From positions 48,371-112,370 of the forward strand of contig JAFWYB010000029.1 of NCBI GenBank assembly GCA_017517865.1: a stretch of 64,000 nt of DNA, read 5' to 3'. Made by a program: the position numbers and the translations under genes. The DNA is from Clostridia bacterium (GTDB taxonomy: Bacteria > Bacillota > Clostridia > Oscillospirales > Acutalibacteraceae). This document shows, in pieces, positions 18,291 to 63,672 of the stretch (positions are counted from its first letter, which is position 1; each line of letters begins with the position of its first letter). Under the pieces are notes generated by a model. That model was not told the origin of the DNA. It worked only from the letters and a program-made list of their open reading frames with translations, and did not search any database.

Positions 18291-18367
18291 CCGCTCATGG
18301 CGCAGTTGGATAACGCAGCAGATTCCGATTCTGAAGAACGGGGGTTCGAATCCCTCTGGGCGGGCCA
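18291..18367 (+). tRNA. tRNA-Arg (anticodon CCG)
   Basis: 77 bases with encoded CCA. Acceptor CCGCTCA / TGGGCGG (one G-U), D-loop AGTTGGATAA, anticodon CCG at 18325-18327, T-arm with TTCGAAT. Reads the rare CGG codon. Confidence 0.93.
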
Positions 18368-18368
18368 G

Positions 18369-18398
18369 AAAAAAGCACTTCTTCGGAAGTGCTTTTTT
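18369..18398 (+). terminator. Terminator of tRNA-Arg
   Basis: AAAAAGCACTTC-TTCG-GAAGTGCTTTTTT, UUCG-type loop and T-run, two bases after CCA. Confidence 0.95.
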
Positions 18399-18401
18399 CA
18401 A

Positions 18402-18566
18402 TGAAATTCGCCTTACGGCGAGTGAAATAGCAATGCTATGAAATATGCTGTTGCATATGAAATATTTGTTTCGCAAATGTTAAGGGCGAATTTTATTTCA
18501 CCTTCTGCGTTAGCAGAAAATTTCATAATCCGTCAGGATTATTTCATATCGCACAGCGATATTTCA
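18402..18566. repeat. Hairpin array 1 (TGAAAT word), behind tRNA-Arg
   Basis: Chain of short perfect hairpins separated by a six-base word. Left half: TGAAAT at 18402, 18423, 18439 and 18458, between hairpins TCGCC/GGCGA, ATAGC/GCTAT, ATATGC/GCATAT and ATTTG/CAAAT. Right half: the same word inverted, ATTTCA at 18495, 18520, 18541 and 18561, between TTCTGC/GCAGAA, ATAATCC/GGATTAT and ATATCGC/GCGATAT. At the turning point GGCGAA (18485-18490) is complementary to TTCGCC of the first module. No plausible coding frame. It can fold as one spine of paired words bearing side hairpins, or as separate hairpins. Confidence 0.85.
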
Positions 18567-18604
18567 TTATAAGAAGAGTTGTTGCCATTTTAAGCTGTAA
18601 ACAC

Positions 18605-18636
18605 AAAAATCGACAAGTCGGAACTTGTCGATTTTT
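18605..18636 (+). terminator. Terminator-like hairpin, copy A
   Basis: AAAAATCGACAAG-TCGGAA-CTTGTCGATTTTT. Both 13-base arms are identical to those at 63532-63563; only the 6-base loop differs. No gene directly upstream ends here. Confidence 0.8.
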
Positions 18637-18640
18637 TTAC

Positions 18641-18667
18641 CCATTGCGAAAACAATGGTATATCATC
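18641..18667. repeat. Single hairpin carrying the TATATCATC word of array 2
   Basis: CCATTG-CGAAAA-CAATGG followed at once by TATATCATC, the constant word of the array at 37172. It links the two loci. Confidence 0.6.
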
Positions 18668-18724
18668 GCTGTAATTAGCTTTTGAATAACATTGACGAAG
18701 TTGAAAATTATTTGATTGATACAT

Positions 18725-18773
18725 ACAATAAACAAAACAGCTGCAAATCTGCTTTTGACAGACTTGTAGCTGT
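18725..18773 (-). terminator. Terminator of nfnB (minus strand)
   Basis: Imperfect stem 18737-18751 with 18759-18773 (ACAGCT/AGCTGT, CAAA/TTG, TCTG/CAGA), then TTTTGTTTATTG on the minus strand. Confidence 0.75.
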
Positions 18774-18783
18774 TGTTTTACTG

Positions 18784-20202
18784 TTAATTTTTGCTCAGAG
18801 CTTTATCAATCGCACTTGCTGCGGTTTTTCCGGCACCCATTGCCGATATAACCGTAGCAGCACCCGTTACGGCATCACCGCCTGCATAAACGTTACTGCG
18901 TGAAGTAAGGCCGTCTTCGGTTATAATAATTCCGCCCTTTTGGTTAACCTCAAGACCGTCGGTTGTAGACTTTATCAGCGGATTAGGTGAGGTGCCGATT
19001 GCAATAATCACTGTATCTATGTCAATTTCGCAGTCGCTTCCCACAATTTCAACGGGACGTCTGCGACCCTTTGCATCGGGTTCTCCCAGCTCCATTTTAA
19101 TAAGCCTCATTGACTTTACAAAACCGTTTTTCGGGTCTCTCGGATCATCGGGGTTGTTGTATCCGATGATTTCGGTTGGTGCACACAGCAGTGAAAATTC
19201 AATGCCTTCCTCAACGGCGTGCTCAACCTCCTCGCGTCTTGCGGGTAGCTCCTCCATTGAGCGTCGGTATATTATATATACATTTTCTGCACCGAGTCTC
19301 AGTGCCGTTCTTGCCGCATCCATTGCAACGTTACCGCCGCCGACAACTGCAACCTTACCGAATTTCATAATGGGTGTTGTGGGGTTTTCAATGTAAGCCT
19401 TCATAAGGTTGCTGCGGGTGAGAAATTCATTAGCCGAATAAACGCCCTTGAGACTTTCACCGGGTATGCCCATAAAGTTCGGTAGTCCGGCTCCCGAACC
19501 GATGAACACCGCTTCAAAGCCCATATCGAAAAGCTCATCAACTGTATAGGTTTTGCCGATTACCGTGTTGGTTTCAATTTTAACTCCCAGTTGTTTTAGC
19601 GTATCAACCTCTTTTGCAACAATAGCTTTCGGAAGTCTGAACTCGGGTATGCCGTAAACAAGTACACCGCCTGCAACATGCAGAGCTTCATATACGGTTA
19701 CGCTGTACCCCTTTTTGGCAAGATCGCCTGCGCAGGTAAGACCTGAGGGACCGGAGCCGATTACGGCAACTCTGTGGCCGTTTGACGGTGGGGGAGCAGG
19801 AGCATTCGTACAGAAGGTGTTGTGATAGTCAGCAACAAAACGCTCGAGCCTACCGATGCCGACAGATTCACCCTTGACTGAGCGAACACATTTTGATTCG
19901 CACTGCCTTTCCTGGGGGCACACTCTGCCGCAGACTGCAGGGAGTGACGATGACTGTGTTATTATCCGATAGGCTTTTTCAAATTCGCCGTTTTTGATTT
20001 CATTTATAAATGCGGGAATATTTATTTTAACCGGACATGCACTAACACAAGGCATATTTTTGCAATTAAGACAGCGTAAAGCCTCATCAATTGCCGTTTC
20101 TTCGCTGTAGCCGAGAGAAACCTCATCAAAATTGTGAGCGCGTACCGTTGGCTCTTGCGTGGGCATTTCATTACGCATAAGTGCCATATTAGCTTTTGCC
20201 AT
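18784..20202 (-). CDS. nfnB: NADH-dependent ferredoxin:NADP+ oxidoreductase, large subunit (NfnB/GltA-like)
   Basis: 472 residues. N-terminal domain with two Cys clusters for [4Fe-4S] centres (CLNCKNMPCVSACPV and CGRVCPQERQCESKC). Then an FAD Rossmann motif (VAVIGSGPSGLTCAGDLAKK), a second nucleotide motif (VAVVGGGNVAMDAARTALRL), and a closing FAD contact (VYAGGDAVTGAATV). The same fold is annotated as glutamate synthase small subunit, but the adjacent NfnA-like gene and absence of a large gltB favour the electron-bifurcating transhydrogenase NfnAB. ATG 20202 with AGGAGA is chosen over a longer in-frame start. One base after the nfnA stop. Confidence 0.88.
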   Translation of the reverse strand: MAKANMALMRNEMPTQEPTVRAHNFDEVSLGYSEETAIDEALRCLNCKNMPCVSACPVKINIPAFINEIKNGEFEKAYRIITQSSSLPAVCGRVCPQERQCESKCVRSVKGESVGIGRLERFVADYHNTFCTNAPAPPPSNGHRVAVIGSGPSGLTCAGDLAKKGYSVTVYEALHVAGGVLVYGIPEFRLPKAIVAKEVDTLKQLGVKIETNTVIGKTYTVDELFDMGFEAVFIGSGAGLPNFMGIPGESLKGVYSANEFLTRSNLMKAYIENPTTPIMKFGKVAVVGGGNVAMDAARTALRLGAENVYIIYRRSMEELPARREEVEHAVEEGIEFSLLCAPTEIIGYNNPDDPRDPKNGFVKSMRLIKMELGEPDAKGRRRPVEIVGSDCEIDIDTVIIAIGTSPNPLIKSTTDGLEVNQKGGIIITEDGLTSRSNVYAGGDAVTGAATVISAMGAGKTAASAIDKALSKN

Positions 20203-20203
20203 T

Positions 20204-63105: not shown

Positions 63106-63147
63106 TAAATATTTTAAAAAAATATCTCTTAAATTCTGAAAAAAGGC

Positions 63148-63176
63148 TTGACAATGCAACGTTGATTGTATATAAT
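63148..63176 (+). promoter_or_regulatory. Promoter of the tRNA operon
   Basis: Consensus TTGACA, 17-base spacer, TATAAT. The -10 lies exactly between the arms of the inverted repeat annotated at 63155. Confidence 0.92.
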
Positions 63177-63189
63177 AATCAACGTTGCA
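63155..63189. promoter_or_regulatory. 13-bp inverted repeat around the tRNA promoter -10, candidate operator
   Basis: TGCAACGTTGATT (63155-63167), 9-base spacer containing the -10, AATCAACGTTGCA (63177-63189). Each arm carries the self-palindrome CAACGTTG (63157-63164 and 63180-63187), centres 23 bases apart. Such paired sites on one face of DNA suggest a dimeric repressor or activator. The transcript start should fall within the right arm. Confidence 0.6.
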
Positions 63190-63196
63190 AATTGAT

Positions 63197-63270
63197 GCGG
63201 GTGTAGTTCAATGGTAGAATCCCAGCCTTCCAAGCTGGTCGCGTGGGTTCGATTCCCATCACCCGCTCCA
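63197..63270 (+). tRNA. tRNA-Gly (anticodon TCC)
   Basis: 74 bases with CCA. Acceptor GCGGGTG / CACCCGC, anticodon stem CCAGC / GCTGG, loop CTTCCAA, T-arm GGTTCGATTCC. Confidence 0.96.
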
Positions 63271-63283
63271 AAATATTATATAT

Positions 63284-63360
63284 GCGCTTGTAGCTCAGTT
63301 GGATAGAGCAACTGCCTTCTAAGCAGTAGGTCAGGGGTTCGAGCCCCTTCAAGCGCGCCA
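63284..63360 (+). tRNA. tRNA-Arg (anticodon TCT)
   Basis: 77 bases with CCA. Acceptor GCGCTTG / CAAGCGC, anticodon stem ACTGC / GCAGT, loop CTTCTAA, T-arm GGTTCGAGCC. Confidence 0.96.
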
Positions 63361-63366
63361 GTATGC

Positions 63367-63444
63367 GGTGGATATAGCTCAGTTGGTTAGAGCGCCAGGT
63401 TGTGGCCCTGGAGGTCGTCGGTTCGAATCCGATTATCCACCCCA
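63367..63444 (+). tRNA. tRNA-His (anticodon GTG)
   Basis: 78 bases including encoded G-1 and CCA. Acceptor GTGGATA / TATCCAC with G-1 opposite C73, anticodon stem CCAGG / CCTGG, loop TTGTGGC. Confidence 0.95.
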
Positions 63445-63457
63445 TTTATTTTTTTAT

Positions 63458-63532
63458 AGGGATGTCGTCAAGCGGTAAGACACAACACTTTGACTGTTGC
63501 ATTCGTAGGTTCGAATCCTGCCATCCCTGCCA
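63458..63532 (+). tRNA. tRNA-Gln (anticodon TTG)
   Basis: 75 bases with CCA. Acceptor AGGGATG / CATCCCT, anticodon stem CAACA / TGTTG, loop CTTTGAC, T-arm GGTTCGAATCC. Confidence 0.94.
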
Positions 63533-63563
63533 AAAATCGACAAGTTTCGACTTGTCGATTTTT
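63532..63563 (+). terminator. Terminator of the tRNA operon, copy B of the repeated hairpin
   Basis: AAAAATCGACAAG-TTTCGA-CTTGTCGATTTTT; arms identical to 18605-18636. It begins on the last base of tRNA-Gln. Confidence 0.93.
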
Positions 63564-63565
63564 CA

Positions 63566-63672
63566 TTTATGTCCGCAGGACATAACTTCATTCGTTTATG
63601 ACGCTGACTTCATTACGGCTGTTAAGCCGTACTTCATTTTGCGGACATAAACGAATGAAGTTGCCTTCGGGC
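63566..63672. repeat. Hairpin array 3 (ACTTCATT word), behind the tRNA operon
   Basis: Left part: hairpin TTATGTCC-GCA-GGACATAA, then ACTTCATT at 63585, 63607 and 63631 around hairpin ACGGCT-GTTA-AGCCGT. Right part: inverted word AATGAAGT at 63654, then TTGCC-TTCG-GGCAA. The block 63640-63661 complements two places: TTTATGTCCGCA at 63566-63577 (12 bases) and ACTTCATTCGTTTATG at 63585-63600 (16 bases). Same plan as arrays 1 and 2, but shorter and less regular. Confidence 0.75.

What the first reader, a model, noticed from the sequence alone, without database searches (positions are those of the whole stretch)
18291..63672. All three hairpin arrays follow tRNA terminators
Seen: array 1 starts 3 bases after the tRNA-Arg terminator, array 2 just after the tRNA-Val terminator, and array 3 just after the tRNA-Gln terminator; none is found elsewhere in 64 kb with about 60 genes. 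All three share one plan: a first hairpin whose left arm and loop recur inverted at the turning point, and words that reverse there. Each locus has its own word. Inference: tRNA 3' flanks are preferred sites, as for many integrating elements, or tRNA transcription matters.
Basis: partly seen in the sequence, partly recalled or inferred. Interest (0 to 1): 0.72.

Follow-up and report, generated by a model that had tools for sequence, protein, structure and literature searches.

The report
Mobile hairpin cassettes behind tRNA genes
The three hairpin arrays are real and sit behind tRNA genes probably because they are parts of small mobile units, some of which carry a gene for a puzzling ribosomal-RNA-insert protein, and they may link several unexplained repeat types in bacteria.

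Summary
In detail: all three arrays directly follow tRNA terminators and share the described plan. In the window's genome 10 of 29 tRNA cluster flanks carry such an array, against 1 of 97 protein-gene ends with a terminator. They are not exclusive to tRNAs: 7 of 13 clusters of Rfam Gut-1 matches follow one.

They look like mobile cassettes. One array family sits behind different tRNAs; one tRNA carries different families or none in related species. At tRNA-Val, five species share the downstream boundary but carry four kinds of terminator and block. In one relative, tRNA-Leu and tRNA-Tyr loci share a unit ending exactly at the stop codon of a four-helix-bundle gene (PF05635, 23S rRNA intervening-sequence protein, IVP). 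An IVP match follows 7 of 29 arrays found independently of it; array-linked IVPs cluster on the tree.

Away from tRNAs, IVP genes in many phyla follow exact 7-base repeats, often inverted on the far side.

The window's arrays lack an IVP gene, so they look like gene-less derivatives. How units move is unknown; a test for RNA-strand selection was negative.

The parts
18291..18367 (+). tRNA-Arg(ccg), anchor of array 1
   Evidence: ARAGORN; Rfam
18368..18399 (+). terminator hairpin of array 1
   Evidence: perfect 14-nt arms
18400..18568 (+). array 1: words TGAAAT (18402, 18423, 18439, 18458), turning point 18484-18500 (copy of first-hairpin right arm), words ATTTCA (18495, 18520, 18541, 18561)
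   Evidence: left part is Rfam Gut-1 RF01706 at 18399-18468, 56.4 bits
18407..18422 (+). first hairpin of array 1
18605..18667 (+). decayed second unit: terminator 18605-18636, first hairpin 18641-18658, word fragment TATATCATC 18659-18667 (family B, compare locus L025)
37057..37133 (+). tRNA-Val(gac), anchor of array 2
37133..37168 (+). terminator hairpin of array 2
   Evidence: perfect 16-nt arms
37172..37355 (+). array 2 (family B): first hairpin 37172-37189, words 37189, 37211, 37240, turning point 37269-37279, inverted words 37278, 37301, 37326
   Evidence: 91% identical over 197 nt to an array behind tRNA-Arg in another species (L138)
37362..37377 (+). right boundary GGACACCCGCACCCGA, shared in near-identical form by five species that carry different blocks here
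63458..63532 (+). tRNA-Gln(ttg), last of four tRNAs, anchor of array 3
63532..63563 (+). terminator hairpin of array 3
63564..63672 (+). array 3 (family C): first hairpin 63568-63584, words ACTTCATT 63585, 63607, 63631, turning point 63640-63651, inverted word 63654, last hairpin 63663-63672; right half shorter than in relatives
63673..63737 (+). right flank with a promoter-like TATAAT at 63721-63726, shared with other family C loci
   Evidence: 63664-63737 aligns over 74 columns with one mismatch to the flank behind tRNA-Arg in G016 (L139)

Best explanation
The arrays are the non-coding chassis (terminator, inverted word-and-hairpin block, promoter) of small mobile or exchangeable one-gene units that settle at the 3' ends of tRNA genes. 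A complete unit, as seen twice in one related genome, is about 585 bases and ends with a gene for a four-helix-bundle protein of the 23S rRNA intervening-sequence (IVP, S23) family. The three units in the window have no such gene, so they have lost, exchanged or never had it. Shown here: related arrays behind different tRNAs, different blocks at one fixed site, the two unit boundaries in one genome, and clustering of the IVP proteins that go with hairpin arrays. Inferred, not shown: that the IVP protein recognises the words, holds the two inverted blocks together and so helps the unit to be copied or exchanged by host replication or recombination enzymes, and that the 3' side of tRNAs and stop codons is used because insertion there does little harm. 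My estimates: mobile or exchangeable units 0.75; same element family as IVP genes 0.6; IVP protein needed for movement 0.35.
For: tRNA preference 10/29 against 1/97. Among 41 arrays compared, 38 pairs behind different tRNAs share at least 100 nt inside terminator and array (28 of the 41 arrays take part; 50 pairs if the whole 420-base flank counts). Window array 2 is 91% identical over 197 nt to an array behind tRNA-Arg in G032, and the flank of array 3 has one mismatch in 74 columns to the flank behind tRNA-Arg in G016, although tpiA is only 83% identical to either species. At tRNA-Val five species share the downstream boundary but carry four kinds of terminator and block: G000 and G006 family B, G002 C, G016 B', G013 hairpin-poor. 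In G033 the tRNA-Leu and tRNA-Tyr loci are alike from the last five tRNA bases to exactly the last base of the IVP stop codon (592-column alignment, 83.8%). Among 16 tRNA-linked IVP loci compared in pairs across different tRNAs, none of the alignments of 150 columns or more that I listed (up to three per pair) passes an IVP stop by more than 12 bases. In the own genome the tRNA-Thr unit (IVP gene) and the tRNA-Glu unit (another gene) are alike until 4 bases into the reading frame. An IVP match begins 27-249 nt after the called array end in 7 of 29 arrays not found through IVP, against 4 IVP matches in the whole 2.69-Mb genome. The 15 array-linked IVP proteins need 3 changes on the tree against 14.2 in shuffles, 0 of 500 as low. 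IVP genes at protein loci show filled and empty sites at two junctions of one operon.
Against: 22 of 29 arrays have no IVP match next to them, and none was found in the window. Two of the seven IVP genes next to arrays (L198, L215) are interrupted by a stop. In tRNA units with a hairpin array both inverted blocks lie on one side of the gene, whereas at protein loci they bracket it, so the two layouts are not simply the same element. I established no target-site duplication anywhere. No reverse transcriptase (PF00078) was found in the genome, which is 95.6% complete, and the only Y1 transposase is on another contig with no array called beside it. The tree has 119 columns and 52 open forks of 110. 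Exchange at tRNA-Val could also come from ordinary homologous recombination between tRNA loci. Most genomes used are draft assemblies and related species are not independent.
Confidence: 0.6

Rival explanations
1. The arrays are host-built RNA or DNA insulators behind strong tRNA operons, kept by selection; similar arrays arise repeatedly and four-helix-bundle genes land in the same hot spots by chance.
For: Very stable folds (median z -5.8 over 41 arrays); position right after terminators and often just before a promoter-like sequence.
Against: A number of orthologous tRNAs in the genus have no array; no strand-specific RNA selection beyond composition; arrays behind different tRNAs share sequence beyond the array; IVP lineage tied to arrays.
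Confidence: 0.2
2. They are REP or BIME-like palindromes spread by a Y1 (IS200/RAYT type) transposase.
For: Short hairpins in both orientations in intergenic DNA; one Y1 transposase in the genome at C25:182-517.
Against: No array called in the 2,017 bases around that gene; hairpins differ while words are constant, and words differ between loci; a different protein family is the recurrent neighbour.
Confidence: 0.07
3. They are remnants of tyrosine-recombinase islands integrated at tRNA 3' ends.
For: tRNA 3' location; other elements in this genus do duplicate the tRNA 3' end (L128, L132, L187).
Against: No duplicate of the last 20 tRNA bases within 3 kb (Arg, Val) or 460 bases to the contig end (Gln) in the window; arrays also occur away from tRNAs.
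Confidence: 0.05
4. Array 1 is a free-standing non-coding RNA gene, as Gut-1 was first described.
For: 56.4 bits against a gathering score of 50.
Against: The match covers only the left part of a longer array, and the right part of the same array also matches on the opposite strand (C66:66885-66960, 43.7 bits); many copies per genome with changing hairpins.
Confidence: 0.06

Closest known systems
Rfam RF01706 Gut-1 RNA (Weinberg et al. 2010, PMC2864571; passages read)
   Same: Array 1 exceeds the curated score; 10 matches in this genome exceed it
   Different: The paper calls it a non-coding RNA, listed as human gut only; here it is the left part of a longer inverted array of family A, with matches in 97 of 245 sampled genomes of the order, 87 over the cut-off
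23S rRNA intervening sequences with the S23/IVP protein (PMC4990558; abstract and passages read)
   Same: PF05635-type gene; terminal inverted repeats; tandem heptamers before the ORF, reported for Coxiella
   Different: Sites are tRNA 3' flanks and operon junctions, not helix 45 of 23S rRNA; in tRNA units the gene lies outside the inverted block and words alternate with hairpins
Heptamer tandem repeats of Xanthomonas and Nostoc (PMC4692102; passages and the Discussion read)
   Same: 7-base units, many in convergent pairs, close to ORF ends, variable between close species
   Different: The paper's main text has no hit for 'four helix' or 'intervening' and gives no function; here such blocks stand beside IVP genes on cyanobacterial plasmids
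Integron gene cassettes (recalled, no call)
   Same: One-gene units with structured DNA next to the gene; two such units in a row on C46
   Different: Order is terminator, array, promoter, gene; I ran no search for an integrase
REP/BIME palindromes (recalled, no call)
   Same: Intergenic hairpins in both orientations
   Different: Variable hairpins, constant locus-specific word, no array called beside the one Y1 transposase

Membership tests
Rfam Gut-1 (RF01706) | Covariance-model score of at least 50 bits | tested here: met
   Array 1 56.4 bits; array 2 only 19.5 bits on the minus strand and array 3 no match at the gathering score, so one of three
Gut-1 as a free-standing RNA gene | Independent unit, not part of a larger repeat | tested here: not met
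   Lies inside a longer inverted array; both strands of that array match
23S rRNA intervening sequence (IVS) | Location inside 23S rRNA | tested here: not met
   tRNA 3' flanks and gene junctions
23S rRNA intervening sequence (IVS) | PF05635 (S23/IVP) ORF in the element | tested here: inconclusive
   Present in 7 of 29 array loci, not found in the window
23S rRNA intervening sequence (IVS) | Terminal inverted repeats around the ORF | tested here: inconclusive
   Score above the control 99th percentile (22) in 36 of 61 non-tRNA genus loci and 49 of 76 from other genomes; hairpin-array units in the genus score 11-18, that is not met
23S rRNA intervening sequence (IVS) | Excision from the transcript by RNase III | not testable with these tools
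   needs RNA work
tRNA-integrated genomic island | Duplicated tRNA 3' end (att sites) | tested here: not met
   within 3 kb (Arg, Val) and 460 bases (Gln); positive controls L128, L132, L187 found
REP/RAYT system | Y1 transposase gene flanked by the repeats | tested here: not met
   single Y1 gene, no array called in its 2,017-base locus, which starts near a contig end
Transposable element (MITE type) | Target-site duplication at empty against filled sites | tested here: inconclusive
   Filled and empty or differently filled sites read at the tpiA junctions and tRNA-Val but no duplication established

The most novel reading that the evidence does not exclude
The window's arrays belong to one lineage of a bacteria-wide superfamily of small mobile elements built from inverted blocks of a locus-specific heptamer and an IVP four-helix-bundle protein. 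That superfamily would also account for 23S rRNA intervening sequences and for the heptamer repeats of cyanobacteria and Xanthomonas whose role is unknown. In this lineage hairpins have been inserted between the words, the gene has moved outside the inverted block, and the block has become a chassis that carries exchangeable genes behind tRNAs. Each IVP protein would recognise its own word.
Probability: 0.33. Interest if true: 0.9.

Novelty: new variant of a known kind. Interest (0 to 1): 0.72.

Why it matters
[quoted passage not shown] It makes an open question testable: does this small protein bind the repeated word next to its own gene and help the unit move? It also supplies defined units, empty sites and exchange events for such tests.

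Tried and rejected
RNA-level function on the tRNA strand: 190 G-U pairs against 121 on the complement and 3.4 kcal/mol better on average over 41 arrays, but dinucleotide shuffles give 3.9 kcal/mol, so rejected as evidence.

Reverse-transcriptase (DGR-like) mobility: no RVT_1 match in the own genome. Y1 transposase: one, no array called beside it. att-type integration: no tRNA-end duplication at the window loci in the spans scanned.

Only 9 viral loci encoding an IVP relative were returned; their flanks were not studied.

A first null for inverted flanks, pairing upstream and downstream of different IVP loci, is very strict because words resemble each other between loci (21 of 77 above its 99th percentile, 1 above its maximum); I replaced it by 547 ordinary genes of the own genome, 5 of which score above 22. 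That null comes from one genome, so for other phyla it is only a rough yardstick.

Strand bias of IVP genes with the upstream neighbour is weak: 52:5 against 399:118 in the own genome, p = 0.016. Cross-phylum 66:4 has no matched control.

Cargo calling was imperfect: my first ORF picker missed genes and was replaced.

Paper searches whose listings showed me no paper that links IVP genes to heptamer or hairpin arrays: 15 of 42 listed; open-licence PMC only, no preprints; titles and abstract starts. One search found the Gut-1 paper. Heptamer repeats in Beggiatoaceae (PMC4679880) and Geobacter (PMC2700814) were seen in a listing only. I therefore do not claim that the link is unpublished.

On re-checking I corrected: the count of IVP matches in the genus (109), the coordinates of the array 1 turn, the number of array pairs (38 within the array, 50 in the whole flank), and verified the tmRNA.
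Full report
Observation. A blind detector for word-hairpin-word series calls these three and nothing else in the window at two of its four settings, and arrays 1 and 2 at the others. Their folds are far more stable than shuffles (z -8.2, -7.0, -10.6). Array 1 contains a match to Rfam Gut-1.

In the own genome (2.69 Mb, 70 contigs) 45 tRNA matches form 31 clusters. Two at contig ends have no flank; one of the other 29 has only 180 bases. The list is not complete: a second tRNA-Ser on C64 was missed by the family search and stands between the listed one and its array. 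10 of 29 flanks carry a hairpin array with at least two word-hairpin-word links: C7:110281, C15, C44:13552, C46, C49, C55, C64:13046 and the three of the window. I judge by eye that three more (C60, C61:29383, C66:7475) carry inverted word blocks with few hairpins. Of 547 protein-gene ends in 719,816 bases (window plus 655,816 fetched), six were called: two are tRNA arrays seen from the far side, two are one array between convergent genes, one lies before the tmRNA gene (ARAGORN) and one may be a false call; so 3 of 545. With a terminator-like hairpin required: 1 of 97. Gut-1 matches down to 32.8 bits fall into 13 clusters, 7 of them behind tRNAs (with positions).

Comparison in the genus. I searched the tRNA-Arg, -Val and -Gln regions in 34 congeneric genomes, own included (30, 34 and 29 had a match; at most 30 loci each were returned and not every locus reached the tRNA flank), and read the flanks that did. 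I name families by word: A (TGAAAT), B (TATATCATCA), B' (TATGTAATC), C (ACTTCATT), D (TGATATA). The same tRNA carries different families or none in different species, and the same family sits behind Val, Arg and Gln tRNAs. At tRNA-Val, G000, G006, G002, G016 and G013 share the downstream boundary and the sequence after it, but carry B, B, C, B' and a hairpin-poor block, each kind with its own terminator. Terminators can also stay: G014 and G000 share the Val terminator with different arrays. An A-word pattern matched 22 of 79 genomes, with no match of the reversed control pattern in any genome (some rows, such as G048, are plain tandem repeats).

Movement between tRNAs. Among 41 arrays, 38 pairs behind different tRNAs share at least 100 nt inside terminator and array, 34 of them between tRNAs for different amino acids. 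74 columns at the right end and flank of window array 3, promoter-like box included, have one mismatch to the flank behind tRNA-Arg in G016; array 2 is 91% identical over 197 nt to one behind tRNA-Arg in G032. The gene I take for tpiA is 83% identical to both species, so these pieces look more recently shared than the chromosomes. I did not test horizontal transfer by trees.

The protein. Several arrays are followed by a four-helix-bundle gene, PF05635 23S_rRNA_IVP, with solved relatives 2rld and 2gsc. Of 32 arrays not fetched through this family, 29 had 300 bases or more of flank, and in 7 of these an IVP match begins 27-249 nt after the called array end; two of the seven (L198, L215) are interrupted by a stop. 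The genome has four IVP matches. In G033, locus L261 (tRNA-Leu) and L267 (tRNA-Tyr) are alike from the last five bases of the tRNA to the last base of the IVP stop codon. Among 16 tRNA-linked IVP loci compared in pairs across different tRNAs, no listed alignment runs more than 12 bases past the IVP stop. In the own genome the tRNA-Thr unit (IVP) and the tRNA-Glu unit (a 164-residue protein with no Pfam family above its cut-off) are alike until 4 bases into the reading frame; the latter is followed by a second terminator, partial array and short ORF. Genes after six other arrays match DUF4279, DUF2812, maltose acetyltransferase, HTH, TfoX_N and LrgA (first 70 residues scanned); they may be cargo or simply neighbours.

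IVP away from tRNAs. 109 IVP matches were listed in 34 genomes of the genus; I held flanks for 77 distinct IVP genes. Of 61 not linked to a tRNA, 36 have upstream and downstream flanks that are inverted copies above the 99th percentile of 547 control genes; of 76 from the 80 best genome-contig loci (record titles name Clostridia, Bacteroidota, Verrucomicrobia, Ignavibacteriae, Pirellulaceae, Propionigenium and others) 49 do. The other 25 and 27 do not. Upstream sequence repeats with period exactly 7 in 39 of 57 and 52 of 77, against 5 of 534 controls; lags 6, 8 and 9 reach the same level in 0, 0 and 0 of 57, 0, 1 and 0 of 77, and 2, 0 and 1 of 534. Of 10 cyanobacterial plasmid loci read (31 records matched) 7 score above the same threshold, one equals it and two fall below; in one of the seven, L425, the blocks next to the gene run the same way and the inverted copy lies further upstream. 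In the operon that I recognise by eye as pgk-tpiA-gpmI the own genome carries an IVP gene in both junctions; several relatives that I read are empty at one or both, and G005, G021 and G017 carry IVP-less blocks with other words (part of the printout was cut). At the second junction the block starts right after the T run of a hairpin.

Tree. 113 proteins (rows under 85 residues and every second cross-phylum record dropped): the 15 array-linked ones need 3 changes against 14.2 in shuffles, 0 of 500 as low. With 119 columns and 52 of 110 forks open this shows clustering, not one proven origin; tRNA loci of related species are not independent.

Reading. The arrays are best seen as parts of mobile or exchangeable units. 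The link to IVP is statistical and anatomical; that IVP acts in movement is inference. Results against it: most of the 29 arrays lack the gene, the tRNA layout differs from the bracketed layout, no target duplication was shown, and the transcript-level test was negative.

Known work. Gut-1 was described as a non-coding RNA from human gut metagenomes (PMC2864571, passages); 97 of 245 sampled genomes of the order have a match. The Coxiella IVS paper (PMC4990558, abstract and passages) reports tandem heptamers before S23p, terminal inverted repeats, and unclear function and origin, citing mobility as one hypothesis. The Xanthomonas/Nostoc paper (PMC4692102, passages and Discussion) reports heptamers, many in convergent pairs, of unknown role. 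The CPR rRNA paper (PMC11270868, one passage) finds IVP in 16S and 23S inserts. I found no paper in the searches listed that joins these, within an open-licence library.

Noticed in passing
L128, L132, L187 (G005, G031 tRNA-Arg; G005 tRNA-Gln); by eye similar sequence in own G000:C5:10244, C61:52336, C38:5273, C65:3533 flanks: A different element duplicates the tRNA 3' end about 150-160 bases downstream and holds a structured GGGATTCGAACAAGGAGGGAGC-like stretch; looks like true tRNA-end integration.
   Followed up: partly
L010 1501-1575 (G000:C64:30810-30884): A one-orientation array (word ATTTCAC) ends just before the tmRNA gene (1598-1945), after a promoter-like sequence, so it may lie in the tmRNA leader.
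   Followed up: partly
L001 (C58), L008 (C24), L010 (C64): Half arrays with words in one orientation only, away from tRNAs; the neighbours look by eye like secA, spo0A and the tmRNA gene.
   Followed up: no
window 37432-37591: 23-nt inverted repeat (96%, 114 nt apart) just after array 2; its left arm is conserved behind tRNA-Val in five species.
   Followed up: partly
window 63761-64000: Reading frame after array 3 (GTG 63761) has an in-frame TGA and then stays open in the same frame to the end of the contig.
   Followed up: no
L268, L269, L280: Near-copies of the tRNA terminator and first words occur on both sides of the word block plus IVP gene.
   Followed up: no
L418 and L425 (Anabaena sp. 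90 pANA02, Pseudanabaena galeata pPg_01): An IVP gene sits between cas6 and cas4 in two cyanobacterial genera, with different repeats.
   Followed up: no
L075 about 4487-6383 (C5): A gene flanked by a very strong inverted repeat (score 164), probably an insertion sequence.
   Followed up: no
L292 and L293 (G021, G017, tpiA-gpmI junction): Word blocks without an IVP gene that keep a subterminal repeat resembling GGGTCGCTTCGCTCCGATTATATCCG; look like internal-deletion derivatives.
   Followed up: partly
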